From the NCBI GenBank assembly GCA_003024175.1, contig MDYQ01000059.1:58271-122270 (forward strand): a stretch of 64,000 bases of DNA. Direction: 5' to 3'. The notes beneath the pieces are model-generated. The model was given only the letters and a program-made list of their open reading frames with translations, was not told where the DNA came from and ran no database searches. Shown here piece after piece: positions 2,609 through 22,573 of the stretch; the first letter of the stretch is position 1; every line of letters starts with the position of its first letter. A program made the translations under genes and the position numbers. Source of the DNA: Planoprotostelium fungivorum (Eukaryota > Evosea > Variosea > Cavosteliida > Cavosteliaceae).

Positions 2609-3961
2609 ATGGAGAAGAGTGACTTCATTGCACCTTTCAAGAACTCTACAGACCATCAACTCTCACATGCTCTTCTGTTTGCAGCTGAACATGAGAAGAA
2701 CGAGTTGGATGTAGAGTCATACTCCAATTCCTCTTGCATGCCTGCAGATCCGTCACAGACATCCATTTCAATACTCGTAAGTCATTTCTCTAAACCTTGA
2801 GACTCTTCAAGCTGATTCATTCTCTCAGCCTGCAGAGATGATGCACGAAATCTTCTCGCTGCTCGACGGTCTCGATCTTGCACGATGTCAGATCGTATGC
2901 CGCAATTGGAAGAAGCTCGGGTAACAACATGCTCAATATGGATAATTATTTACAAGTACAGAGAGAAGAACTCTTTTTGGCATCGCCTCTGTGAGATCAA
3001 CAAATACCACATCTTCTGGCTACGTGATCTGGACTTGACACGTCCCATGAATTACGATTGGAAGGATGTGTACCGCTGGTATCATCTTGTTGATAGTGTG
3101 AGTCGTAATCCATGCATCATACGATATGGATTAAACATACTACAGCGTAACTTCGTGAACGTCAAAGAATCCGATCAAGACAAAGATGCGTCCAAGGAGA
3201 AGATAGACAAGAACGGCTACGGAACAGATCAGACAGACGCAGGTAAAATGCACGTTCACACTGCATAGACTCACTCCCCATAGGAACATACAGAGGTGAA
3301 TGGAAGGATAACAAGAAGGAAGGAAAAGGTACCCCGACCGAATGCATCATCTTCATCTGACACATGCAGGTATCCATGTGTGGCCAGATCAGAGCCGATA
3401 CGAGGGAGAATGGAAGACAGACAAAAGAAATGGATTCGGAGTCTACTACTGGGCAGGTCAGACATCGAAGATGATGATGTTGGCGACCATCTGATGTGGA
3501 CAGATGGGAGGCGTTTCGCTGGTGATCATCGCAACGATAAGAGGAGCCGAGGTATCTTCTACTGGCCGGAGGGGTCTATATACGATGGCGAATATTTGGA
3601 CAGTCACCGACACGGTAGAGGCAAGTTCACATGGCCAGACGGAGACTCTTACGAAGGAGGGTGGATGAAGGGAGGAAGATTTGGAAAGGGCACGTTGACT
3701 TGCGTCCAGAAGGGTGAGATGATGATGTCATCCATCACACGAACCATCATGTCTGAACTTGTTTAGGAGAGGAGGGCGTGTACATACAAGACAACTGGGC
3801 AGAGGAGAACTTTGAATTCTTCACCAAAGGAGACAAGACTGTGCGGGAGGAAGAAGAACCATCGCCACCATCACGAGAGAGAAACGGAGAGCCACCACTC
3901 AAGAGGGTGAGAGGATGCATTCTCACATCTTATCTGATGATGATTGCAGATGAAAAAGTGA
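2609..3961 (+). CDS. F-box protein with MORN repeats
   Basis: Probable substrate receptor of an SCF ubiquitin ligase. An F-box lies in exons 2-3 (PAEMMHEIFSLLDGL, CQIVCRNWKKLG), followed by a short linker rich in W and Y. About five MORN repeats follow (GTYRGEWKDNKKEGKG, YEGEWKTDKRNGFGVYYW, IYDGEYLDSHRHGRGKF, YEGGWMKGGRFGKGTL), spread over exons 5-8. The tail is acidic then basic (EEEEPSPPSRERNGEPPLKR). Introns are 36-53 nt; one near 2923-2958 is only 36 nt. The last intron, 3907-3949, leaves a three-codon terminal exon (MKK). Reading through instead would add about 26 unlikely residues. MORN repeats are often linked to phosphoinositide or membrane association, so a membrane-localised ligase is possible (inference). 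Confidence 0.8.
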
Positions 3962-4097
3962 TGTCTTCGATGATGCCCTTGTGTGCTCATAGCTCGAGTT
4001 GTATAAATTGTGGATGAAGACTTGTGCACATGTAAACTTTTCTTCGTCGTCTATAGACCGATAAGGTTATTTATTGTATGTTGCAAAGGTCCTGTAG

Positions 4098-4667
4098 TCA
4101 ATGTCTACTCGACTTGATGGTGTCGGCAGGAATGGACTTGTCCTCCGTGAAAGTCAGAGACACAGAGTTCACACAGTGTCTCTCATCAGTGGGTGTGGGG
4201 TATCTCTCTCCCTACCAACCATCATCACACGTCACTATCATTCGCCGTCATACCTTGAACACGTGACCCAGATGACCTCCACAGTTGTGGCAGACGATCT
4301 CGATTCTTCTTCCATCGGCGTCAGAATGTCTATCGACTGCTCCTGGGACGGTGTCGAAGAAAGCAGGCCAGCCACATCCAGAATCAAACTTGTGAGCGGA
4401 GGTGTATAGAGGTGCAGCGCAGCCAGCACACTTGTAAACTCCTGACGTCGCATGAGTTTGATAAATCACTCTTGCATGCTAACCTGCTTCTTTGTGCTTG
4501 TTGTATTCTCCTGTGCCTGGGTATTCAGTTCCCTTCTGTCTCAAAACACGAAATTGTTCCTTGTTGAGGACAGCTTGCCATTCAGTATCTGACTTGTTCA
4601 CGGCGTGAGACATTGTTGTTGATGATGTGTTCGTTGATTGTGTCGTGACCAGCTCCTCTGTTTGCAT
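4098..4667 (-). CDS. msrB: Methionine-R-sulfoxide reductase B
   Basis: Reduces methionine-R-sulfoxide in proteins using thioredoxin. Exon 1 carries the substrate-loop motif EYPGTGEYNKHKEAG. Exon 2 has the zinc site, with two CxxC pairs (CAGCAAPLYTS and CHNCGGHLGHVF) and the conserved SGCGWPAFF. Exon 3 carries the catalytic cysteine in RHCVNSVSLTF. Two introns separate these, about 4441-4482 and 4212-4254. All key residues of the MsrB family are present. The first ATG is at 4667; a second in-frame ATG 18 codons later (MSHAVNKSD) matches family N-termini better. No targeting peptide is evident, so cytosolic or nuclear location is likely. It is convergent with the F-box/MORN gene. Confidence 0.92.
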
Positions 4668-4918
4668 TGTAGATGACGTAAAATTTCATATTGATTGATT
4701 TCAGCTGTCTTTCAGCTTGGTTTAGCCCTGGGAGGGCAAAATATGAAGACAACCACCACCAGCACCTCTTGCCTCTTAATTCATCACTCCATCACGTCAT
4801 ATGACCTTATCTACGTATCCCAATTTGGTCAGCTGAGTGTTGTATTGACCCACCTAATCTACGATGGTTGCCAGGAAACCCAACTACGGTTTTACTTTCA
4901 CAACAGCGACCCGCCATC

Positions 4919-9053: not shown

Positions 9054-11548
9054 ATGTCGGCCAGTCTCTTCCTCTTCCTCTCTGTCTGCATATCCTTCTC
9101 TGTGGCAGACGATTGTTACTTTCTTAACGACTGTGAAAATGCAACACTGTCTTTCTCTCAGGTGAACAGTTGAGTGTCTCATAGCTGTTCTGATGAGAGT
9201 CTCAGTGCTGGAACTGTACGTCAGGACAGACACTGCCGACTGCAGAATCCACAATCATCTTCCAGTCTGTGGACAATGTGACATTGTCCAATGTGATCCT
9301 GGTCGTCAGGGATATACACATTCGCGACAGGTGCGGATCGCATTTACAGCAGAACATCTCATTTCTTCAATCATCGAATGCTTACTCTTTCTTCAGTCAG
9401 TTGACCTGGACCCAGTCCAACGTTTCCTCTTTCAATCTCTTCGTAACGAGTTCTACATTTATTCTGAATGCTTCCACCGTCCTCATTCGACAAGATCTCT
9501 CTGTCCAGTCGAACAGCAGTGACATACGGTTTATCGACTCGACCCTATACTGCACCACGGCCTCATTCAATCTCACACGGCTGTCCTTCTCATCGGGATG
9601 GACCCATTTAAACATGTTCAACTCTACCCTCACTCGGCTGATCGGAGCAACACTTAACGTCGGTTCACAAGTCGTGTGGAGTGGAGATGTGACGGCATCG
9701 TCTTCCATCGTGGTCCACATTCCACAGGAAGACATGCTGGTGTCCATCACATCCTCAAACTCGTCCGTCATTCTGGACAACACATCCATCCTCGGTCCCC
9801 TCTCTTGGTTCGCTGGGGCCTTCTCCATCCGCAATTGCACTCTAGACTCCACATCACCTTCCACCCCTCCAAACACCACGTCATCCACCTCGAACACATC
9901 CGGCCTCTTACGTGCCTCTTACTGGACGGATCTCCGCAACATGATCTACATCGTCGACACCACCATCAGAGGTGCCTGGTCTCTCCAGAGTGAAATCAGT
10001 AACACGCTGCACCGCATCAACGGATCATCGACGCTCCATCTCAAAGGAGAATGGATCGTCTCACAATTGCGAGCAAAGGAATTGACTATGGAAGAATTCG
10101 ACCCTTACAACATGTGGACAATCCAGAATGTCTTAAACGTCGAACGTCTCATCATCCATCGGCTGATGATCTCAACCAGCTACTCTTATCTCAACTTGCC
10201 TCGCTCTACCTCTTACACTATCGACGAGATTTATCTTCAAACCAGTTCCGTTTGGACATCCACACCGGTTTGGTCGTCCACACCGGTCCGAGGCGGAATT
10301 CCAACTAATTTCTCGGACTCCATTCGGACCACCTCGGAATGCTCGAAATGGGTGTCGGACTACAACATGTCAATCGTCTACAACGAGACGGCTCTGTACG
10401 TAACCTACGTACCCCCCACTCCCAACATCACCTACGGCTGGTCCGACGGAATCCACACGAGTTTTCTCGACGCCGGCCACTCTTTCTGGACTACATCATA
10501 CTGCACGGACGACGATCTAAAATATTATCGTCTCATCATCGAAGATGGTGATCATCGCAGGGTCATCAACAATATTTACTCGAACGCGTACACGACTTTC
10601 TCTGTCCCAGACGAGAACAGCTGCACATATAAGAAGGTCAAAGTCTATCTCGAGAGCATGGGAGGAGGAGAGAAGACGAGATCGATACCGCTCGAGGTGA
10701 AAATCCGCCCCGCCGACGTCCTCTTTGAGAGATACTATCCGTGGGGATTCTACAACGAGACAGAGAGCCGCATGACGGCTTTGGCGGGAGCAGACTCTGG
10801 CAAGATACAGATCTGGTGGAATGCAACGGAGATACCCAGCATCTGTGGCTACGAAGCACAGCAACTCTACTTTGGCAACCAGTCGGTGGCAGTCTCCCGG
10901 GGACAATTTACGTACCGTGCCACACGGGAGCGTAAGATGGATTACCCTTGCGCCATTACCTACTACGCTGTCCCCGCCGTATCAGTGGTCTACGCGAAGG
11001 AAGGAAGAAGCATCAAGAGCTCACCGTTCGTACCACAGGATTACTCTTATCCCACATCTACCACGTACAACTTTTACCGCAATCTCATTCCAGTGGATGC
11101 TGCCATCACCCCGGACCATTTCAACTTGCGAGTCATCCAGGCATATCCAGATTCCGATTACAAAACGCTCCGAACGGACGACGTACCGAACGATCGATGT
11201 GCCTGCGGCAGCTTCGTTCTCGTCGTGCAGATCTACCACCTCAACGGAACCATCTTGACCTCTTTCTCTCTGTCGAACACGATGATGCAGGCGTATACGC
11301 GCATAGCTTACGGACGATATGTGATGTACGTGACGGGAGCTTGTACGTCAAACAGTGTGTACGATGCGTACGGAGGATACGGGAGGACCATCAAGAGTGA
11401 GCTCGTCTTAGAAGAAGAGCCGCTCAGTCCTCTGAGATGGATCCTTCCGGTCTCTATTATCGGAGGCTTGATCGTAGTGGTGGGGGCCGTCACGGGCCTC
11501 GTTTTGGTTAAGAAGAGGATGAGGCATAACTACTACCGTCTGGAATGA
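9054..11548 (+). CDS. Large secreted/type I membrane glycoprotein, unknown family
   Basis: About 795 residues. Exon 1 encodes a clean signal peptide (MSASLFLFLSVCISFSVA) and begins the ectodomain. One intron follows, with the acceptor probably CTTCCAG near 9263, giving SVDNVTLSNVILVV. The rest is a single 2.3-kb exon, very long for this region. The ectodomain is rich in Ser, Thr and Tyr with dozens of N-x-S/T sequons and scattered Cys. The first 250 residues have a repeating beta-strand look (VTLSNVI, NVSSFNLF, NSTLTRLIGATLNVG), suggesting a parallel beta-helix or adhesin-like fold. A single membrane segment near the C-terminus (ILPVSIIGGLIVVVGAVTGL) is followed by a short basic tail (KKRMRHNYYRLE). 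Probably a cell-surface adhesion or matrix protein; no known domain recognised. Confidence 0.8.
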
Positions 11549-12021: not shown

Positions 12022-13657
12022 CTATTGCGAAATTCCATCCTCTTTCACGACTACCATCTCAATCTTCGCAGAGGTACCCGAATCAGCGCTGGCCTTTTGG
12101 CTCTCTTCCGTCACTGCACTCATTCCCGAAGACATGATGAGAGCTGGATTGAACCATTTGTTCCACTCCCACACGGGCATGCAGATGTTCAGAGCGCAGA
12201 GAGCACATATCCATCGCAGAGTCGAAAATATGTAGACGTTCTGTGTTGATATCAGGTCACACCGTCAGAGGTCACGTCACATTGATGGCTTTGAACCCGG
12301 ATATGGAGGACGTCGATGAGATGACGTGAGTGGTCAGATTTGCGACCACAGATACCAATGCAAATAATCCTATGGATATCATTGTCTGATGGATGGTGAG
12401 GGGTGGTGCGAGATACTACGTGATATGGATGACTCACCGACACGATGCGTACAGAGAGACCACTTGGGATGATCTGCATCAGTCGAATGCCGTAGACGAG
12501 GTAGCCCACACCAAAGACGACCCAGACAATGATCATGTAGATACTGTAAAATGTTCCATAGGCGACCACCGTGTTGAAATCTCTCGCTTCTAAATTGATG
12601 ATGACCTTGATGAAGTCAGCGATAGTAAGATGTGATCGGGGGACCCACCACTGCGATCCAAACTGTGAACGAAACGATTACAAAACCAATATAGGCAAAC
12701 CTGAATTTGGATAAGAACTGCATCTTCAAGATGACCTGTTCATCTCGTCAGACGATGATCACGTCATGACGTCACCTCTTCGATAGACAGAGTGGATTGA
12801 TAATCCGGTTTGATTTTCTTCAGCATGGCCTCTCGCTTCATCTTCCTAACTGAAGAATAATACAACTCGGCCCTGTGACGGTTCACATGCATCGTGACGA
12901 CCGTCGACCCACCAGTGGAAGAGCAGAGCGGAGAAGATGAGGACAAACAGGGGGTCTGTCAATAAGTACAGTACGTACATGGTCTTGTAGTTGATCCTTC
13001 CCAGCATACCCCAATAATCGATGCTGGGAAGAAGAGAAACTGTTCCAGTCTGTCACGATGACGTCATGTAATCTCCACTTACGTATGGAGTGCAGAAACG
13101 TCAGAGAGAGAATCCACCACACGGTCAGTACGGCCGTGCTGCGGTTACCTCTGGAGATGAAGTATTGCACGATGAGGCGATAGATCAATAGGAGAGACAA
13201 GAGACCATATATAACCCCGTGGTAGATCATGGTACCCCGTATGTATGTATCGAACACACCAGGAATCCCCACCACATCTGATGATGACTTCAGATCGCGA
13301 TCGGAGGTCTCATGCGAGATGAATATACTCACTGTATGGACAATCGTCTCCAGCTCCACCTCGGTTATCGTTCAAGAGCCCAAAATAACTGATCCTCTCA
13401 GCACACAACGTCATGCTGATCAGCTCACCCTGCGTAGCACCTGCAAGTTCCATCATACTGACAGACTCCATTTCCATTGCAAGTGGGGCTGCTTCTGTCA
13501 ATCATCTCTTCGTGCCTCCCTCTCACTTGTAAATTCTGCAGTTGTAGATCCTGGTCGGTGCTGCAGTCACAGATGTATCGTTGACACTGGACTCTTTCAC
13601 AGTCTGAGCCACAGAGAGGAGACAAAGAGTCAAGAATAAAGCTAAGGCCGCCAGCAT
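12022..13657 (-). CDS. EGF-like/seven-transmembrane protein, array copy 1
   Basis: First of four tandem paralogues. In order it has a signal peptide (MLAALALFLTLCLLSVAQ), a Thr/Asn-rich stalk, an EGF-like motif (CNGNGVCQYDGTCRCYAG) and a short Cys loop (GGAGDDCPYS). About seven hydrophobic segments follow: VIYGLLSLLLIYRLIVQYF, VWWILSLTFLHSI, MYVLYLLTDPLFVLIF, then later VWVVFGVGYLVYGIRLMQII and WICALCALNICMPVWEW. A lysine-rich loop after segment 3 (SVRKMKREAMLKKIKPDY) is conserved in all copies. The tail is cytosolic. The FGVGYLVYGIRL segment recalls THH1/TOM1/TOM3 7TM proteins, but that link is tentative. About eight introns of 33-55 nt. A putative surface receptor. Confidence 0.75.
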
Positions 13658-13999
13658 CTCTAATTTATGACGATAGTGAAACGGTCGTGCACGATATATT
13701 TGTCGTTCGCAAAACGATCAGCCGCGCAGTATAGGGATAAATTCTATCGCTCCATCGAGGAGAGCAGGTGCAACCTTCTCAAATCTTCGTGTGATATTTC
13801 AATCGGGCTGTCTGTACTGCTGGTGGAGTGAGAAATTTTAAGCAGAGTAACCAATGAAGCTCCCACGAGCGTCACGCATTCCTGTGAATTCGGGTCGTAG
13901 TGGATAAATAATAGATCGTAGTTCTGATATCCACACTGGAACGATCCTCCCGATGAAAGAAGACGCGCTGAACGTATAAACTATACTATTGCTGTATTA
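13658..13999. other. Spacer between array copies 1 and 2
   Basis: This is the promoter-sized gap upstream of copy 1 and 3' of copy 2. No coding exon is seen. It is not obviously similar to the other three spacers by eye. Confidence 0.4.
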
Positions 14000-15594
14000 C
14001 TACATTGTCACTGTGCCCAGTTCCATCTTTGATTCAAGGGATTCCGTGCCGGAAGGGTGACTGGCTCCAATTGAGGTCGATCTCAGGGATTTGATGAGTT
14101 TGGGGTTGAACCACTTGTGATATTCCCACACAGGCATACATACATTGAGGGCACAGAAGGCACTGATCCATCGCAGAGTAGACATGACGTAGACGTTCTA
14201 TAGAAGGTCATCATCTTCCACCACTTCGGCGTCCTCACGTTAATGGCAGACACGCCGGGTACTTGGAGGTTGAAAGAATAAGAGCTGGCGCTGTATGCGA
14301 TGGATGCCGCTGCAAAGATGGCCATGGAGATCATGGTCTGGATCATGTGAGATGGATGTGAGATGATTATCGTCACCGATTTGATACGAGTTGTGAGACC
14401 GTCTGGCACAATCTGAATTAATCGGACGCCGTAGACGATGTACCCGACGCCAATGAGAACCCATATGACGATCATGGCAACGTTGTAGAAGTATCCGTAT
14501 ACATCTGCTCGATGCATGTCTCTTCCAGTCAGACTGGACACGCACTGCATCATCTCACATCAGATGAAGATGATGTTTGGATGGAGCTCACCGCTCCAAT
14601 GAAGAAGGCGAAAGAGAGGACGGCAAGACCCATGTACATAAATCGAAATTTGGACAGAAATTGAATTTTCAAGATCACCTGCGGACGTCAACATCATCGA
14701 CGGATGTCATTCTAACATCACCTCTTCGATGGTCAGATTCGATTGGTAGTCCGGTTTGATCTTCTTCAGCATGCTCTCTGTTTTCATCTTCCTCACGGAT
14801 GAGTAGTACAATTCGGCCCTGTTCCACGCTCAATCGGGGAATGAGATGACGCCTACCAGTGAAAGAGGAGGGAAGAGAAGATGAGCACGAAGAGAGGGTC
14901 TTGTAACACATATATGACGAACAGAGCCTTGAAGCTGATCTTCCCCATCATGCCCCAGTAGTCCACACTCTGTAAACCTCCAACTGTCCCATACGTCAAC
15001 CGATGGTTCTAATCGGCATTTCGTCTCACAGATGGCATGAAGCAGGATGAGAAATAGAATCCACCACACAGCCAGAACCGATGTGTTTTTGTCATTTCTG
15101 GAGATGAAATACTGGATGAAGAGGCGGTAGAGGGTCAATACGAGGAGTATAGCGTATATGACGCCTTGGAAGATGAGAGTTCCACGGATGTATTCGTCGT
15201 AGACACCAGGCAAGTCCAAAGTGCCTGTCGAAATGGTCAACCGATGTCGGTCCATCTTTCCATCTCACTGTATGGACAGTCATCTCCGATTCCTCCACGA
15301 TTCGTATTCAAGATCCCAAAGTAACTGAACTTTGTTAGACTTTTACGGCGGGCGCGACTCACCCATTGTAACATCTGCATGTTCCATCGTACTGGCAGAC
15401 ACCGTTACCATTGCATGAAGGACTGTATCGAGTCAGCTCGTTCACATCGTTTCCTCTCACTTGTTGATCCTGCAGTCATAAACTCGGGTAGGAGGTGCCT
15501 CCGCCACAGATGTTTGGTTGACGCTGGTGTCGTTCACACTCTGTCCGATACAAACGGAGACGATGAAGAGGAGGACGATAGACCTGATCATCAT
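14000..15594 (-). CDS. EGF-like/seven-transmembrane protein, array copy 2
   Basis: Same architecture as copy 1. The signal peptide is MMIRSIVLLFIVSVCIGQS and the stalk ends APPTRVYDCRINK. The EGF-like motif is PSCNGNGVCQYDGTCRCYNG, followed by NRGGIGDDCPYS. Membrane segments include GVIYAILLVLTLYRLFIQYF, VWWILFLILLHAI, VIWVLIGVGYIVYGVRLIQI and WISAFCALNVCMPVWEY. It is the most divergent copy in the last segments (KWFNPKLIKS instead of the W.NRWF form) and has its own tail ending ELGTVTM. The intron positions match copy 1. A longer N-terminus starting at 15654 is possible but would weaken the signal peptide. Confidence 0.75.
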
Positions 15595-16149
15595 CGTGCG
15601 GGGCGGTGGTTGTGTCAGCGGACGATCTCTAGCTGCAGCAGTAGTTCCACACACCTCTAACGTCTTTCGACTGTTGTACTAGGAAAGAGCTCGAAGTATT
15701 GACAGCGTGGCATACGAGTGTCAGTTCATTCGCGTCTCTTTGCGAACAGGGGTGACAGAAAGGACAAAGAAAGTTAAAATGTATGAATCCACACACCAGA
15801 TGTAACGCGAACCTCTTATTCGAAATGTGTTGTCAAGATATAACGATTCGACAGTCTGATTGTTTCGAGAATAAGGTCGCAACATTGCCAAAAGCACAGC
15901 TGCTGGAAGTCGTGATTCTCTATCGGCTCCTCTACCAATAGAGTTCAATGGATCGATACATCTGTATCGGAGACTTTGTCTGTAGGGTGAATCTCGATGA
16001 TAATTCATCACGGAAGCCCACGGATGAGATACAACAAGCTGTCAATAAAACAACGAAGGACATTTTCGATTCAAAATGACACCGCATCCATCCGTCTCTA
16101 TACCACGAACCCAATCGAAGATAGTAAAGTTTATTGATATACATGATGG
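15595..16149. other. Spacer between array copies 2 and 3
   Basis: At 555 bp this is the longest spacer of the array. Short ORFs occur on both strands but none has a domain-like sequence or intron signals. No RNA gene is seen. Confidence 0.35.
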
Positions 16150-17868
16150 TTACGAATCGTGATCGACTCTCAATTCGATGTCGCGCCTCTCCAATTCGAT
16201 GGCATCCACCTTTTTCGGTGAGACCTCACTCTGCGGCAGCGGCGATTCCACATCCGTCATCGTTCCGGATTTGTCCATACCCGAGTTGTGACTTCCACCC
16301 GTTCTCGTGCTGGCCAGCGAAGTGAGCATCGCAGGGCTGAACCATCTGTTCCATTCCCACACGGGCATGCAGATGTTCAGCGCGCTGAACGCACAGATCC
16401 ATCGCAGTGTCGACCATGCATACACCTCCTGTCCTCTCTGTCAGCTCTTCTCTTCTCTTTCGCTCGTGCGTCTCACGTAGATGGCTGTGAGGTCTTTGAC
16501 CTTGAGAGACAGTGCATACACTGTGCAGTTGTACGCAATCGAAGCAATGGCAAACATGGCCAGGCATACCATCGTCTGTATGTTCTTAAGTTGTCTCTCC
16601 TCTCGGCGTGATTACACTTACCGATTTGATGCGAACAGATAGACCGTGTGGCATGATCTGGATGAGACGAATGCCGTAGATGAGATAGCCCACACCGAAG
16701 AGGATCCACACTACGACGAAGAAGATGCTGTAGAAAGAGAAGTAGGCGTCAGATATGGCGATGTTCTTGACCGTCAGACTGCAGATGCACTATCGAGGCG
16801 TCAGATGAGGTGGTGGCTCGTTGTTGATTCACCATTCCGATGTATACAGCGAAGGACAAGATGGCGAGGGCGAGATAAGCGAATCTGAACTTAGACAAGA
16901 AGTGCATCTTCAGTATGACCTGGATATGTCATCAGCTTCTGCATCATTGGCACGATGTCATCATCACCTCTTCGATCGTCAAGTTGGATTCGTAGCTTGG
17001 CTTGATCTTCTTCAGCATCTGCTCCTTCTTCATCTTCTTGACTGAAGAGTAGTACAGCTCAGCCCTGTCTCTGTGTTACCTCTCTTCTTCACGTGCGTGT
17101 TACATACCAGTGGAAGAGCAGAGAAGAGAAGATGAGCACGAACAGTGGGTCCGAGAATAGGAAAGTCACGAGGAGTTTCGGATAACTGATCATGCCCAGC
17201 ATTCCCCAGTAGTCGATGCACTGTAGCAATCCAACTGAAACCGTCGTCAGAGATGATGTGATGCGACATCATGCGAATGCTCACGGATGGAATGCAAGAG
17301 AATGAGGCATAAGATCCACCACACGATCAGCACTGACGTGTTCTTGTTGCTTCCTGAGATGAAGTACTGAAGGATGAGACGGTAGAGAGTTAAGAGGGTG
17401 AGAACGCTGTAGATGACTCCTTGGTATATTCTAGTTCCTCTGATGTATTGGTCGTAGACGCCGGGTATCATCGCCACATCTGCATTCGGTGTTAGACATG
17501 TCTCTCTTTCGATGCGATGCTCACTGTATGGGCAGTCATCTCCGGGTCCCCCTCGGTTATTATTCATAAGCCCGAAAAATCTGAGAACGCCTTCAGTCTC
17601 CCTCTAAAGAGGCGAGATGACCCACCCGTTATAGCACCGGCAGGTTCCGTCGAACTGACAGACTCCGTTACCGTTGCACGTGGGGCTGCAGAAGATTCAG
17701 TCACCTCCACATCATGAAACACTCTCACTTGTTGATTCTGCAATCGTAGACTCGTGTGGGTGGTGGCGGTGTAGAAGACGTCGTGTTGACATCTGTTCCG
17801 TCGGTGCTCTCGGCGGTGGTGCACGCGATGAACGCGAAGGCGATGAGAAAGATGATCCTGCCGTTCAT
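16150..17868 (-). CDS. EGF-like/seven-transmembrane protein, array copy 3
   Basis: Signal peptide MNGRIIFLIAFAFIACTTAE, stalk ending PPPPTRVYDCRINK, then an EGF-like motif and the GGPGDDCPYS loop. Segments match copy 4 closely, for example YRLILQYFISGSNKNTSVLI, the lysine-rich loop KKMKKEQMLKKIKPSYES and FGVGYLIYGIRLIQIMPHGL. The C-terminal tail is copy-specific, acidic and basic, ending ERRDIELRVDHDS. Part of the 3' end (16334-16534), with one complete intron, is almost identical to copy 4, pointing to recent gene conversion or unequal crossing over. The frame is intact throughout. Confidence 0.75.
16334..16534. repeat. Gene-conversion tract, copy-3 arm
   Basis: These 201 bp match 18404-18604 with a single difference (C at 16411, T at 18481). 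The tract covers the end of one exon, a whole intron of about 48 nt and the start of the neighbouring exon. Identity drops sharply at both ends. Intron identity means selection on protein alone cannot explain the match. Confidence 0.85.
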
Positions 17869-18234
17869 CCTGGGGGATGTGAAGCTGAAGCGGTTGGTTG
17901 TTGGTGTTGTCCTCTTAGAATGATACCGGACGATGGTGTATCCGAAGCATAGGGCATCGTCGAGAAAAAAGCCGACCTGCCTGGTGCCTTCGAAAATATC
18001 TTCACTTAACGCAAATCAGGACCTGAAGATTTACTCTGGCATGAGACAAAGGTGGAAGCGTGGTTCTGGCGAAGTGCAGCTCCAGGGTCGTTACCGAGGC
18101 AACCTCCAGTCACCACAACCCTGGAACACCTCACTCTATTTTCAACCACGTCTGAATCGTCAGCGATGGAGGATGTTCTCGACTGTACTTCGAACGCCGT
18201 TCAAATATATCCAATGAATTCTCTAAAACTTTTA
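17869..18234. other. Spacer between array copies 3 and 4
   Basis: This gap is upstream of copy 3 and downstream of copy 4. No coding exon or RNA gene is seen. Confidence 0.35.
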
Positions 18235-19913
18235 TCATGCGTCTTGAACGACTTGCAATTCGACTTCTGTGGTATCCTTCCTCATCGGTAACTCGTTCTG
18301 TGTTGACTGCTCCACATCGATTCCCATCGATTTGTCCACGGCCACCTCCGAGCTGGTGTGGTTGCTCGTTCTGCTCGTACTGCCGAGAGACTTGATGAGG
18401 GACGGGCTGAACCATCTGTTCCATTCCCACACGGGCATGCAGATGTTCAGCGCGCTGAACGCACAGATCCATCGCAGTGTTGACCATGCATACACCTCCT
18501 GTCCTCTCTGTCAGCTCTTCTCTTCTCTTTCGCTCGTGCGTCTCACGTAGATGGCTGTGAGGTCTTTGACCTTGAGAGACAGTGCATACACTGTGCAGTT
18601 GTACACGATCGAGGTGATAGCAAACATGGCCAGGCATACCATCGTCTGTACGTTGTTTAGCTCTCTCTTCCTACTCTCGTCCGTCACTCACCGATTTGAT
18701 GCGAATGGATAAGCCATTGGGCATGATTTGAATGAGACGAATGCCGTAGATGAGATAGCCCACACCGAAGAGGATCCACACTACAACGAAGAAGATGCTG
18801 TAGAACGAGAAGTAGGCGTCAGCGGTTTCGATATGTTTGGTCGTCAGATTAACCGCGCACTAGAATAGCGTCAGAATGAGATCGTTTCGTTGATTTTACG
18901 ATCACCTCTCCGATGTATACGGCGAAGGACAAGATGGCGAGGGCGAGATAAGCGAATCTGAACTTAGACAAAAAGTGCATCTTCAGTATGACCTGCGGAG
19001 GAATGAATGGATGGATCGATGGTCGTACAATCACCTCTTCGATCGTCAAGTTGGACTGATAGCCCGGCTTGATCTTCTTCAGCATCTGCTCCTTCTTCAT
19101 CTTCTTGACTGAAGAGTAGTACAGCTCAGCCCTGTCTCTGTGTCACCTCTCCTCTTTGCATGTGTGTCACTCACCAGTGGAAGAGGAGAGAGGAGAAGAT
19201 GAGCACGAACAGTGGGTCCGAGAATAAGAATAAGACAAGCATCTTCGGATAACTGATCCGGCCCAGCATTCCCCAGTAGTCGACGCTGGGTAAGAGACCA
19301 ACTGAAACGTTTCAATGGAGGATGTGAAGATGATGCATCTCACGGATGGAATGCAAGAGGATGAGGCACAAGATCCACCATACGATCAGCACTGACGTGT
19401 TCTTGTTGCTTCCTGAGATGAAGTACTGAAGGATCAAGCGATAGACGGTCAAGAGGGTGAGGATGCTGTAGATGACTCCTTGGTAGACTCGGGTGCCGTA
19501 AATGTACGTATCGTAGACCTCAGGCAGGATGATGACACCTGAAGATGAGATGAGACACGAACGACCATGAAGTTTCAACTTACTGTAGGGGCAGCTATCT
19601 CCTGAACCTCCTCGGTTGTTGTTCAAGAGCCCGAAATAGCTGACCTTGTCAGAACTTCCTCGTGATCGCACCACTCACCCATTGTAACATCTGCATGTTC
19701 CATCAGACTGGCAGACTCCATTGTCATCACAGTGAGGACTGCTCAGATATCAGTCATCATGTGTGCAGAGACATCATCTCACTTGTAGATCCTGCAGTCG
19801 TAGGCTCTCGTGGGGGCAGGTGCCACGGACGTCTCGTTGACGCTTGTAGAGTTCTGCCCGGAGCACACTCCCAATAAGATGGAGACGATGATGGCAGTTC
19901 TCAAGTTGATCAT
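18235..19913 (-). CDS. EGF-like/seven-transmembrane protein, array copy 4
   Basis: Signal peptide MINLRTAIIVSILLGVCSG, a stalk with sequons (NSTSVNETSV), then an EGF-like motif with an aspartate-rich variant (CDDNGVCQSDGTCRCYNG) and NRGGSGDDCPYS. The membrane core is nearly that of copy 3. The tail is copy-specific and ends VELQVVQDA. The promoter region is divergent from the GMC oxidoreductase gene. Which residues vary (stalk, EGF motif, tail) and which are fixed (core, lysine loop) suggests one signalling core with diversified ligand and cytosolic ends (inference). Confidence 0.75.
18404..18604. repeat. Gene-conversion tract, copy-4 arm
   Basis: Partner of 16334-16534: 200 of 201 positions identical, intron included, while sequence on both sides diverges. 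Confidence 0.85.
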
Positions 19914-20376: not shown

Positions 20377-22573
20377 ATGAGGACCGCAGCCCTCCTTGTA
20401 TTCTCCCTCTTCCTAACGGTTCAATGCGCCGTGTCCAACATCCCCAATGACTACCAAGTCTTCGACTATGTAGTTCTCGGTGGAGGTGGTGCCGGTGAGT
20501 TGGTGAGATCGGATGGAAAGAGTCTGAACGTGAGACAGGTTCGGCCATGGCCAGTCGTCTCTCTGAGTCTCCCTCCAAGAATGTCTTGGTCGTTCAGTAC
20601 GGAAATGACGATGTGAGATGGATGATTCCAACGTATGATGGAGCTGACAGACGATAGCCCTGCTACCTCTGCGACAACACCACGCAGATGACCATGATCT
20701 TCTCCGGACTCTACACCAGCAACGGAGACGACTACTTTTCCACCCCTCAACTCTTCAGAGGTCGCAGCATCCGCGAGGTTAGATCTTCACATCGTGTCCA
20801 TCTCCATCCGATTCACATTCGAGCAGGTCCGTACCGGTCTCCCGGGCGGTGGCACTCGTTACTACGGAGCTGTCTCCATCCCTTCCTCTAAGAAGGTCTT
20901 CGACACGTGAGCAGCCATCATCATACGATCCCATCTGATGCCCATCCAGCAAGTGGCCTGCCGGATACGATTACAACACCATGCTGCCTTATCTCAGAAA
21001 GTTCCAGGACCACTACTGCAACTACTTCAACTCGAGCGTCACCAACATCTCCGCCGCAGACTGTGCTCTTCTCCACGGAAAGGGTGGACCCATGTCCCTC
21101 TCTTCTCCTTACCCCGGTGTCGATTACCAAACCGTAGTTCAAGACTTTTACAAATCTGCATCGGAGGTGATCCACATCCACATCATCTCATTTCGACTCA
21201 TCTTCCATCAGTTCAACGTGTCTGTCGTCCCCGACGCTTACAACCCTCAATACCAGAAGGGAGACTATGTCTTTCCCATCACCTCTTTCCAAAACAGAGC
21301 CAACAAGTACGATCTCCTCTCCAACCGCTCTCGAGCTTCCACCTGGACCGGCTACCTCCCCCTCAGCGTCCGTCAGCAGAGAGGAAATTTGAAGTTTGCC
21401 TTCAACTCGGAAGCGAGACAGCTCATCTACGCCACTGATCTCCTCATGAGGCCGGACCTGCTCATCCGTCTGGGTATTAATGTCTCCACTCTGTCACGCA
21501 CCCCCAAAGTCGTCGGAGTTTTGTACCTCCAGGTGATATATCTGCCCACGCCCCGCTGCATTGTCCCACACCTTCTCCATGAACTGACAAGGCACAGAAC
21601 GACACACTGAAGGCTGCCTTCGCGACGAAGCAGATCATCTTGTCCGGTGGTGTGACTGGTACCCCCCACTTCTTACAGCACAACGGTATCGGTCCCACAG
21701 ATTTGTTGACTCAGAAGGGTATCGCAGTTGTGGCCGACAACTCTCAAGTCGGTCAGAATCTCGCCGTTCACCAGGCCGTCTCCATGGTCTTCGTTGCCAA
21801 GCAACCCGTTCCCACCACCACGACCAACAACGGTGACATGGCCGTGAGTCCATCTACAAAGTCTCATTCGATTGAAACACCTTCAGAACATGCAGATGAC
21901 TTCTCCCTACAACGAGGGCTACCCCGATGTAGAGGTCGAGCTCAAGTTTGGAGTTGGAGTCCGATCCATCGACCCTCCCATCACTGCAGTAGAAGACTTC
22001 TACCTCACCACACCCGCCTCCCCTGAGGGCAACTACCCCTTCATCTCCACGATCGTTACCGTGACGAACCCCATGTTCCGCGGTAGCGTTAACGTGACCG
22101 GTCCCAAGTTCTCCAGCCCCGCCGAAGTCGAATACGGATGGCCAAAGGATGCCGGCGGCTACGCCACTTCAGTCGATTACTCCAAATTGACTTGGGGTTT
22201 CAACAGAATGAGACAGATCTTCACTGGTAACAACTCTTTCGCTAGAAAGTGGGTGCAATACGAGAACTGCCCCGGTGTCTCCTCTACCCTCCCACAGAGC
22301 ACCAACGACCTCTTCTACTCGGCTCAGTACCAACACTCGGTGTACCACCTTACTGGTTCCGGTGAGTTTCGAAACCCGCTCCCGGCCATTTTTTTCCTGA
22401 CCCCTCCTTCAGTCGGTTTGGGTAGAGCGACGGATCTGCAGGGAAGAGTGAAGGGTATCACTGGACTGACCGTGTGTGACAACAGTCTGATCCCCCACCC
22501 TCCCAACGCCAACCCCACCACGACCATGTTGGCCCTGTGCGAACGCATTGCCGAGTACGTCAAGACTTACTAG
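20377..22573 (+). CDS. Secreted GMC (glucose-methanol-choline) oxidoreductase
   Basis: FAD-dependent alcohol/sugar oxidase or dehydrogenase. The signal peptide is MRTAALLVFSLFLTVQC. The dinucleotide-binding motif is split by an intron: YVVLGGGGAG then SAMASRLSE. Later come the GMC pattern LSGGVTGTPHFLQHNGIG and, near the C-terminus, YQHSVYHLTGS and PHPPNANPTTTMLALCERIA, the regions that supply the active-site His/Asn and FAD contacts. Seven short introns lie between. Secretion plus fold suggests extracellular oxidation of a carbohydrate or alcohol with H2O2 production. The exact substrate cannot be read from sequence. Length (about 580 residues) fits the family. Confidence 0.88.

What the first reader, a model, noticed from the sequence alone, without database searches (positions are those of the whole stretch)
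12022..19913. Tandem array of four EGF-like/7TM putative receptors
Four same-strand paralogues share signal peptide, Cys-rich EGF motif, a GGxGDDCPYS loop, seven hydrophobic segments and an invariant lysine-rich loop. Only the stalk and tails differ. An EGF-like module on a 7TM core with weak TOM1/THH1 flavour in one segment does not match a receptor class I can name. Diversified outer and inner ends on a fixed core look like a small recognition or signalling family.
Basis: partly seen in the sequence, partly recalled or inferred. Interest (0 to 1): 0.75.

Follow-up and report, generated by a model that had tools for sequence, protein, structure and literature searches.

The report
Large undescribed EGF-capped seven-pass receptor family
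Four neighbouring genes in what looks like an amoeba genome encode proteins that appear to cross the membrane seven times behind a small EGF-like cap; they belong to a family with copies at some 46 places in this one genome that matched no receptor family in the libraries searched, and may help the cell sense its surroundings.

Summary
Four minus-strand genes (13657-12022, 15594-14000, 17868-16150, 19913-18235), 10 exons each, encode 406-435 aa proteins: hydrophobic N-terminus, six-cysteine EGF module, seven hydrophobic spans, conserved Lys-rich TM3-TM4 loop. One reader claim fails: extracellular loops 2 and 3 vary as much as stalk and tail, while the EGF is among the most conserved parts. The array belongs to a family at 46 or more places in this 36.9-Mb genome. 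All 33 that I modelled carry EGF plus the 7TM region, with recurring intron phases. None of 15 members scanned matched a 7TM family in Pfam, and the profile's PDB matches all fell on the EGF stretch. THH1/TOM1 resemblance is weak and confined to TM5 in local alignment. PGAP6/TMEM8 has the same layout, but its three-histidine signature is absent. Unexpectedly, 4 of about 15 GMC-oxidoreductase loci stand divergently beside a family member. Best reading: a lineage-expanded 7TM receptor family not described in anything I searched. Ligand, G-protein coupling, location and fold are untested.

The parts
12022..13657 (-). Gene 1 (414 aa), 10 exons: 13657-13527, 13488-13429, 13388-13333, 13277-13083, 13039-12913, 12872-12776, 12735-12649, 12605-12438, 12385-12281, 12240-12022
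   Evidence: spliced model, all introns GT-AG
14000..15594 (-). Gene 2 (406 aa), 10 exons: 15594-15461, 15422-15363, 15324-15269, 15224-15030, 14983-14857, 14818-14722, 14678-14592, 14544-14377, 14337-14239, 14197-14000
   Evidence: spliced model
16150..17868 (-). Gene 3 (435 aa), 10 exons: 17868-17729, 17685-17626, 17580-17525, 17479-17285, 17234-17108, 17064-16968, 16919-16833, 16789-16622, 16575-16477, 16428-16150
   Evidence: spliced model
18235..19913 (-). Gene 4 (427 aa), 10 exons: 19913-19783, 19738-19679, 19639-19584, 19538-19344, 19301-19175, 19131-19035, 18992-18906, 18859-18692, 18645-18547, 18498-18235
   Evidence: spliced model
15269..15594 (-). Gene 2 exons 1-3: signal peptide, variable stalk and six-Cys EGF module; the sixth Cys lies in the GGxGD[D/S]CPY[N/S] loop. 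Same layout: gene 1 13657-13333, gene 3 17868-17525, gene 4 19913-19584
   Evidence: Pfam EGF-type matches below the curated cut-off for genes 1, 2 and 4 (best E 6.7e-4 gene 1, 9.5e-4 gene 2, 0.0039 gene 4)
14722..14818 (-). Gene 2 exon 6: conserved Lys-rich TM3-TM4 loop (ICL2). Same in gene 1 12872-12776, gene 3 17064-16968, gene 4 19131-19035
   Evidence: 80-95% identity among genes 1-4; M207, K210, E222 in 32-33 of 33 members
20377..22573 (+). Divergent neighbour, 463 bp from the ATG of gene 4: GMC oxidoreductase with hydrophobic N-terminus, 603 aa, 9 exons
   Evidence: spliced model; Pfam PF00732 E 3.4e-10 and PF05199 E 1.1e-14

Best explanation
The four genes are members of a lineage-expanded family of cell-surface seven-transmembrane receptors that no library I searched describes. 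SHOWN by sequence: hydrophobic N-terminus of signal-peptide type; one six-cysteine EGF module directly before TM1; seven hydrophobic spans with loop charges that favour an outside N-terminus and inside C-terminus; a conserved 41-residue basic loop between TM3 and TM4; copies at 46 or more places in the genome; duplicates under purifying selection. INFERRED: the protein sits in the plasma membrane with the EGF outside. The EGF cap is a constant element (folding, dimer or co-receptor contact, or lid), because it is as conserved as the inner loop. Ligand specificity lies in the outer parts that vary: stalk, ECL2, ECL3 and perhaps TM6. Ligand binding moves TM5/TM6, and the conserved ICL2 plus ICL3 pass the signal to one shared cytoplasmic partner, most likely a heterotrimeric G protein. 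The variable Ser/Thr-rich tails set regulation or localisation. A secreted GMC oxidoreductase that is divergently paired with some copies may make or destroy the ligand (speculative).
For: Architecture in 33 of 33 modelled loci, five EGF cysteines invariant in 33 of 33; sixth Cys in 28 of 33 models, and encoded in an alternative or left-out exon for the other five (L043, L048, L049; L042, L052). Hydrophobic N-terminus in 31 of 33 (start codons were chosen among in-frame ATGs partly by hydrophobicity, so this count leans towards signal peptides); the exceptions L040 and L043 probably lack a first exon in my model. Seven spans at best-window KD >=1.0 in 31 of 33. Mean K+R: ICL2 6.8, ICL3 3.3, tail start 3.4 against ECL1 0.9, ECL2 1.3, ECL3 1.4. 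Family-wide identity by region: EGF 46%, ICL2 45%, ICL3 41%, TM3 40%, against ECL3 12%, ECL2 16.5%, TM6 20%. Tail Ser+Thr 28% against 14% for whole proteins. Copies at 46 or more places. G-alpha (PF00503) at 9 places over cut-off, two of them with identical scores, while the named GPCR families I searched in the genome are scarce: Dicty_CAR one place, Frizzled only that same place, GPR180/TMEM145 three places (classes B and C were not searched genome-wide).
Against: No 7TM family in Pfam (15 of 33 members scanned) or NCBIfam (12 of 33) and no 7TM chain in the PDB, so 'receptor' rests on architecture alone. DRY-like motif at the end of TM3 in 0 of 33, NPxxY in 1 of 33. ICL1 charge (1.3 K+R, 1.4 D+E) does not discriminate inside from outside. 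G-protein coupling, location and expression are untested. Two of 33 models miss one span at the threshold (L031 TM7, L047 TM3).
Confidence: 0.58

Rival explanations
1. They are distant THH1/TOM1/GPR137-type seven-pass membrane scaffolds that have gained a signal peptide and an EGF module; the basic ICL2 would hold a small GTPase (ARL8- or Rag-like; partners recalled, ARL8 also in a listing) on a membrane instead of acting as a ligand-driven receptor.
For: Profile of the 33 members against this genome's own THH1 protein (C219; PF06454 E 3.1e-57) aligns TM5 and part of TM6 (YG..L..I motif): score 25.1, reached by 2 of 200 locally shuffled controls. Against the THH1-like protein at C116: score 30.6, reached by 0 of 200. 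In a forced global alignment LLFHWAELY of TM3 lines up with LILFWAEI of THH1.
Against: No PF06454 hit in hmmscan at E<=10 (0 of 15 members scanned), and none of the family loci among the 5 matches of the PF06454 genome search (C219, C116, C450:148.8k). hhalign probabilities are 4% and 17% in local mode and 0.9% in the forced global alignment.
Confidence: 0.17
2. Non-signalling surface adhesion or phagocytic proteins: the EGF module and loops bind prey, kin or matrix, and the 7TM part is an anchor linked to the cortex through ICL2.
For: EGF modules are common adhesion modules (established knowledge); a conserved EGF in a large family fits recognition of surfaces. Nothing in the sequence demands G-protein coupling (no DRY-like motif).
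Against: A single small EGF on a seven-pass anchor is an odd design for adhesion, and ICL2, ICL3, TM3 and TM5 are better conserved than the outer parts other than EGF.
Confidence: 0.15
3. Membrane hydrolases of the CREST superfamily like PGAP6/TMEM8A, which also has signal peptide, EGF-like domain and seven spans, and trims GPI anchors.
For: Same order of parts: the PGAP6 layout is given in the Figure 2 legend of PMC10457582 (passage read).
Against: CREST lipases share three His, one Asp and one Ser (same paper, passage); here one His column is conserved (28 of 33, end of TM3). HxxxH occurs in none of the four window genes and somewhere in 5 of 33 members. No CREST/TMEM8 family in Pfam at E<=10.
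Confidence: 0.04
4. An artefact of reading exons by eye (chance ORFs or pseudogenes).
Against: Splice sites, recurring phases and reading frames hold over 33 loci; overall dN/dS of the window genes is about 0.10-0.24.
Confidence: 0.01

Closest known systems
THH1/TOM1/TOM3 domain proteins (PF06454) and GPR137
   Same: Seven spans; a YG..L motif in TM5 and WAE at the end of TM3 (compared with this genome's own THH1; GPR137 likeness recalled)
   Different: The own-genome THH1 has no EGF and a shorter TM3-TM4 loop; profile similarity is below significance; the true THH1 is a separate gene (C219)
PGAP6/TMEM8A (CREST superfamily)
   Same: Signal peptide + EGF-like + seven spans (PMC10457582 passage)
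   Different: Three-His signature absent; no Pfam match
Remi-sans-famille (RSF) GPCRs (PMC12716839)
   Same: Unclassified 7TM, reported in amoebozoans, weak link to THH1/TOM1 (section read)
   Different: RSF has no other domains and carries NxLQxxMNxL between TM6 and TM7; that motif is in 0 of 33 members here
EGF-TM7 adhesion GPCRs (ADGRE/CD97 type; recalled)
   Same: EGF module outside a 7TM
   Different: No PF00002 7TM and no GAIN/GPS family hit; the ectodomain of about 100 aa leaves no room for GAIN
mGlyR/GPR179 (Cache+EGF on a class C 7TM; PMC12716839 passage)
   Same: An EGF-like module next to a 7TM
   Different: No Cache domain and no class C 7TM hit

Membership tests
THH1/TOM1/TOM3 (PF06454) | Significant match of the 7TM region to PF06454 | tested here: not met
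   0 of 15 members scanned at E<=10; no family locus in the genome search with PF06454
THH1/TOM1/TOM3 (PF06454) | Distant homology by profile comparison | tested here: inconclusive
   Local match at TM5; score reached by 2 of 200 shuffles for C219 and 0 of 200 for C116; probabilities 4% and 17%, 0.9% in forced global mode
CREST/PGAP6-TMEM8 | Three His, one Asp, one Ser in the 7TM core | tested here: not met
   one conserved His column only (28 of 33); definition from PMC10457582
CREST/PGAP6-TMEM8 | SP + EGF-like + seven spans | tested here: met
RSF GPCRs | NxLQxxMNxL helix motif between TM6 and TM7 | tested here: not met
   0 of 33
RSF GPCRs | No domain other than 7TM | tested here: not met
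   EGF in 33 of 33
Adhesion GPCR (class B2) | PF00002 7TM and GAIN/GPS | tested here: not met
   no such family among the hits at E<=10 for 15 members
GPCR (functional) | Seven spans, N-terminus outside | tested here: met
   hydropathy (31 of 33) and loop charges; prediction only, ICL1 does not discriminate
GPCR (functional) | Class A motifs E/DRY and NPxxY | tested here: not met
   0 of 33 and 1 of 33
GPCR (functional) | Ligand-dependent coupling to a heterotrimeric G protein | not testable with these tools
   only shown that the genome encodes G-alpha
GPCR (functional) | GPCR fold | not tested
EGF-like domain | Six cysteines in EGF spacing | tested here: met
   C-x6-C-x5-C-x5-C-x-C-x18-C in the four window genes; Pfam matches of genes 1, 2 and 4 stay below the curated cut-off; best E among the 12 scanned members 1.5e-5

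The most novel reading that the evidence does not exclude
A new class of 7TM receptor, defined by an EGF cap and the near-invariant residues R117 (TM1), D156 (after TM2), W191/Y195 (end of TM3), M207/K210/E222 (ICL2), W280/G291/L294/P299 (TM5-ICL3) and P363/W370 (TM7), that became the main environmental-sensing repertoire of this organism, in which the usual amoebal GPCR classes are few. Some copies work in divergent gene pairs with a secreted GMC oxidoreductase that makes or destroys the receptor's ligand: a built-in signal/receptor cassette.
Probability: 0.25. Interest if true: 0.8.

Novelty: new variant of a known kind. Interest (0 to 1): 0.57.

Why it matters
The one GPCR survey of amoebae that I read in part (PMC10445921: passages and the first of three parts of its results section) found receptors by InterPro signatures and then by BLAST with known members, and would miss a family without a signature. 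In its Table 1 Protostelium fungivorum has 14 GPCRs. If this genome is that species or a near one (not established), a family at 46 or more places would outnumber that list about three to one. One conserved inner loop shared by a varied set of outer faces also makes coupling testable with one chimera or one ICL2 bait.

Tried and rejected
Pfam, NCBIfam and PDB searches for the 7TM part gave no significant match; apart from EGF-type families Pfam listed only weak one-member matches (such as DUF7949 E 0.009, which lies on the EGF, and MSP1a E 0.043), NCBIfam six one-member matches at E 0.11-4.5. PDB gave eight sequences, all on the EGF stretch: five tubular-mastigoneme-type proteins (E 0.0042-5.8) and three ribonucleases (E above 9). 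Scans of viral and prokaryote collections with the family profile gave 124 and 92 pattern matches but no relative, so no intronless relative was available to fold. Membership in THH1/TOM1, CREST, RSF and adhesion classes was tested and not met. Attempts to name the organism: literature searches (listings) gave no assembly to compare; PMC5006619 (passages) has none. Few Frizzled/cAR hits fit the P. fungivorum row of PMC10445921, but that is not proof. Literature searches that could have met this family. Beyond listings I saw passages of PMC12716839 and its section 23, passages and part of one section of PMC10445921, passages of PMC10457582 and PMC5006619; nothing I saw describes the family. The library lacks most subscription papers, and no eukaryotic sequence collection was on hand, so relatives in other amoebae could not be sought.

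Five more places (C410, C268, C471, C120 at a contig edge, C1:520k) came and were seen as matches only. A fourth C5 piece, C26 (EGF part only) and C430 (tail only) are not counted. No modelled row was dropped before the 'of 33' counts. First-pass splice models were refined in two rounds with sub-group profiles. Pfam was run on 15 of 33 members: 12 in A1, gene 4, gene 1 and L040. The 12 of A1 were picked by me to span the clades.
Full report
WHAT IS THERE. I rebuilt the four genes with hand-set splice junctions checked by script. Each has 10 exons and nine GT-AG introns of 38-55 nt; exons 2-8 have identical lengths in all four (60, 56, 195, 127, 97, 87, 168 nt). Proteins are 414, 406, 435 and 427 aa. 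The 'GGxGDDCPYS loop' is the C5-C6 loop of the EGF module; after splicing it reads GGxGD[D/S]CPY[N/S].

THE FAMILY. A search of the window's own genome (36,859,091 bases, 471 contigs) with gene 2 gave matches at 41 separate places (my clustering); two more divergent queries added five; a third added only a tail-only match on C430 that I do not count. The tool says such counts are lower bounds for large families. I modelled 29 places outside the window with a spliced profile aligner of my own (loci; models); with the window's four that makes 33. All 33 carry the EGF cysteines and the 7TM part. Five EGF cysteines are invariant in 33 of 33; the sixth is in 28 of 33 models, and for the other five a Cys-bearing exon was left out (three, two). 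Intron phases recur across clades, though not in every model: phase 2 just after the CRC motif, phase 1 at the end of the EGF, phase 1 after TM2, phase 2 at the end of TM3, phase 0 in or after ICL2 and after TM5. This suggests that the EGF is ancestral to the family. A maximum-likelihood tree gives 23 of 30 inner branches with strong support; the window's four form one clade (100/100), within a group with C21 and C146 (98/92). Other clades are 22-37% identical to gene 2.

TOPOLOGY AND CONSERVATION. Averaged hydropathy shows one N-terminal and seven further strong peaks. Seven spans pass in 31 of 33 members; L031 (TM7) and L047 (TM3) fall short. Positive charge is higher in ICL2, ICL3 and tail than in the three outer loops; ICL1 is neutral. 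Conservation peaks in EGF (46% mean pairwise identity, helped by its cysteines), ICL2 (45%), ICL3 (41%) and TM3 (40%), and is lowest in ECL3 (12%), the linker (16%), ECL2 (16.5%) and TM6 (20%), followed by signal+stalk (21%) and tail (23%). Among genes 1-4 the pattern is similar. Overall dS is 2.0-2.9 for all pairs except genes 3 and 4 (0.62); dN/dS is 0.10-0.24 by a simple count method. Genes 3 and 4 share 236 of 246 bases over exon 9, intron 9 (48 of 48) and the start of exon 10, while their 5' ends are 46-61% identical: a sign of gene conversion or unequal crossover. Site-wise selection was not tested.

RELATIVES. Pfam gives EGF-type matches, below the curated cut-off wherever the cut-off was shown, NCBIfam nothing significant, PDB only matches to the EGF stretch. 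No viral or prokaryotic relative was found. THH1/TOM1: the genome has a genuine THH1 (C219) and a THH1-like 7TM at C116 (25.0 bits; DNA). Profile comparison to both lights up TM5-TM6 only; 2 of 200 and 0 of 200 locally shuffled controls reach the scores, with probabilities of 4% and 17% and 0.9% when a global alignment to THH1 is forced. I regard this as a hint of common ancestry, not membership. PGAP6/TMEM8A has the same layout, but its three-His signature is absent. RSF receptors share the weak THH1 link, but lack other domains and have a motif not found here.

NEIGHBOURHOOD. A GMC oxidoreductase with a hydrophobic N-terminus starts 463 bp upstream of gene 4 on the other strand. The genome has about 15 GMC loci (12 places, three more). 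By contig position four lie divergently within about 0.4-1.1 kb of a family member: C448 (window), C146 (L001), C127 (L051) and C471 (match positions only); the other 11 do not lie near a counted member. With 46 receptors, 15 GMC genes and an assumed 10,000-16,000 genes, 0.02-0.03 such pairs are expected by chance. The four pairs are not independent: C448 and C146 receptors group together, and C471 is similar to C127 (44% over 72 residues). But those two groups lie far apart in the tree, so the link is either very old or arose twice (P for two or more about 2-6e-4 under the same assumption). Most counted members (42 of 46) have no such neighbour among the GMC loci found.

MECHANISM. The constant parts (EGF, TM3, ICL2, TM5, ICL3) and the variable parts (stalk, ECL2, ECL3, TM6, tail) suggest one shared inner partner and many outer inputs: a receptor family. 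The variable outer loops, rather than the EGF, are the likely ligand readers. G-alpha genes are present at 9 places while the three named GPCR families I searched for are scarce. DRY-like and NPxxY motifs are missing (0 and 1 of 33). Everything after topology is inference.

ORGANISM. Not given. Short introns and the GPCR profile fit an amoebozoan such as Protostelium (partly recalled knowledge); I could not establish it.

Noticed in passing
window 20377-22573 (+); L001 2207-3027; L051 from 5879; C471:189622-190737: GMC oxidoreductase genes stand divergently beside family members at four of about 15 GMC loci in the genome; chance expectation about 0.03 under an assumed gene number; the four are not independent.
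   Followed up: partly
window 16330-16575 and 18400-18645: Genes 3 and 4 share 236 of 246 bases here, including an identical 48-nt intron 9, while their 5' ends are 46-61% identical: likely gene conversion.
   Followed up: yes
window 9197-11548 (+): 783-aa open frame, 23% Ser+Thr, 22 N-glycosylation sequons and a C-terminal hydrophobic segment; no Pfam match at E<=0.01. Perhaps a large surface protein next to the array.
   Followed up: partly
L054 about 3200-4900 (-) (C116): A THH1-like 7TM at the PF06454 cut-off (25.0 bits) that seems, read by hand, to have an N-terminal outside domain: a possible second kind of 7TM with an ectodomain.
   Followed up: partly
G000 C41:56580-57578 and C213:35240-36238: G-alpha matches with identical scores on two contigs: recent duplicate or assembly redundancy, so contig-based counts may include a few doubled loci.
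   Followed up: no
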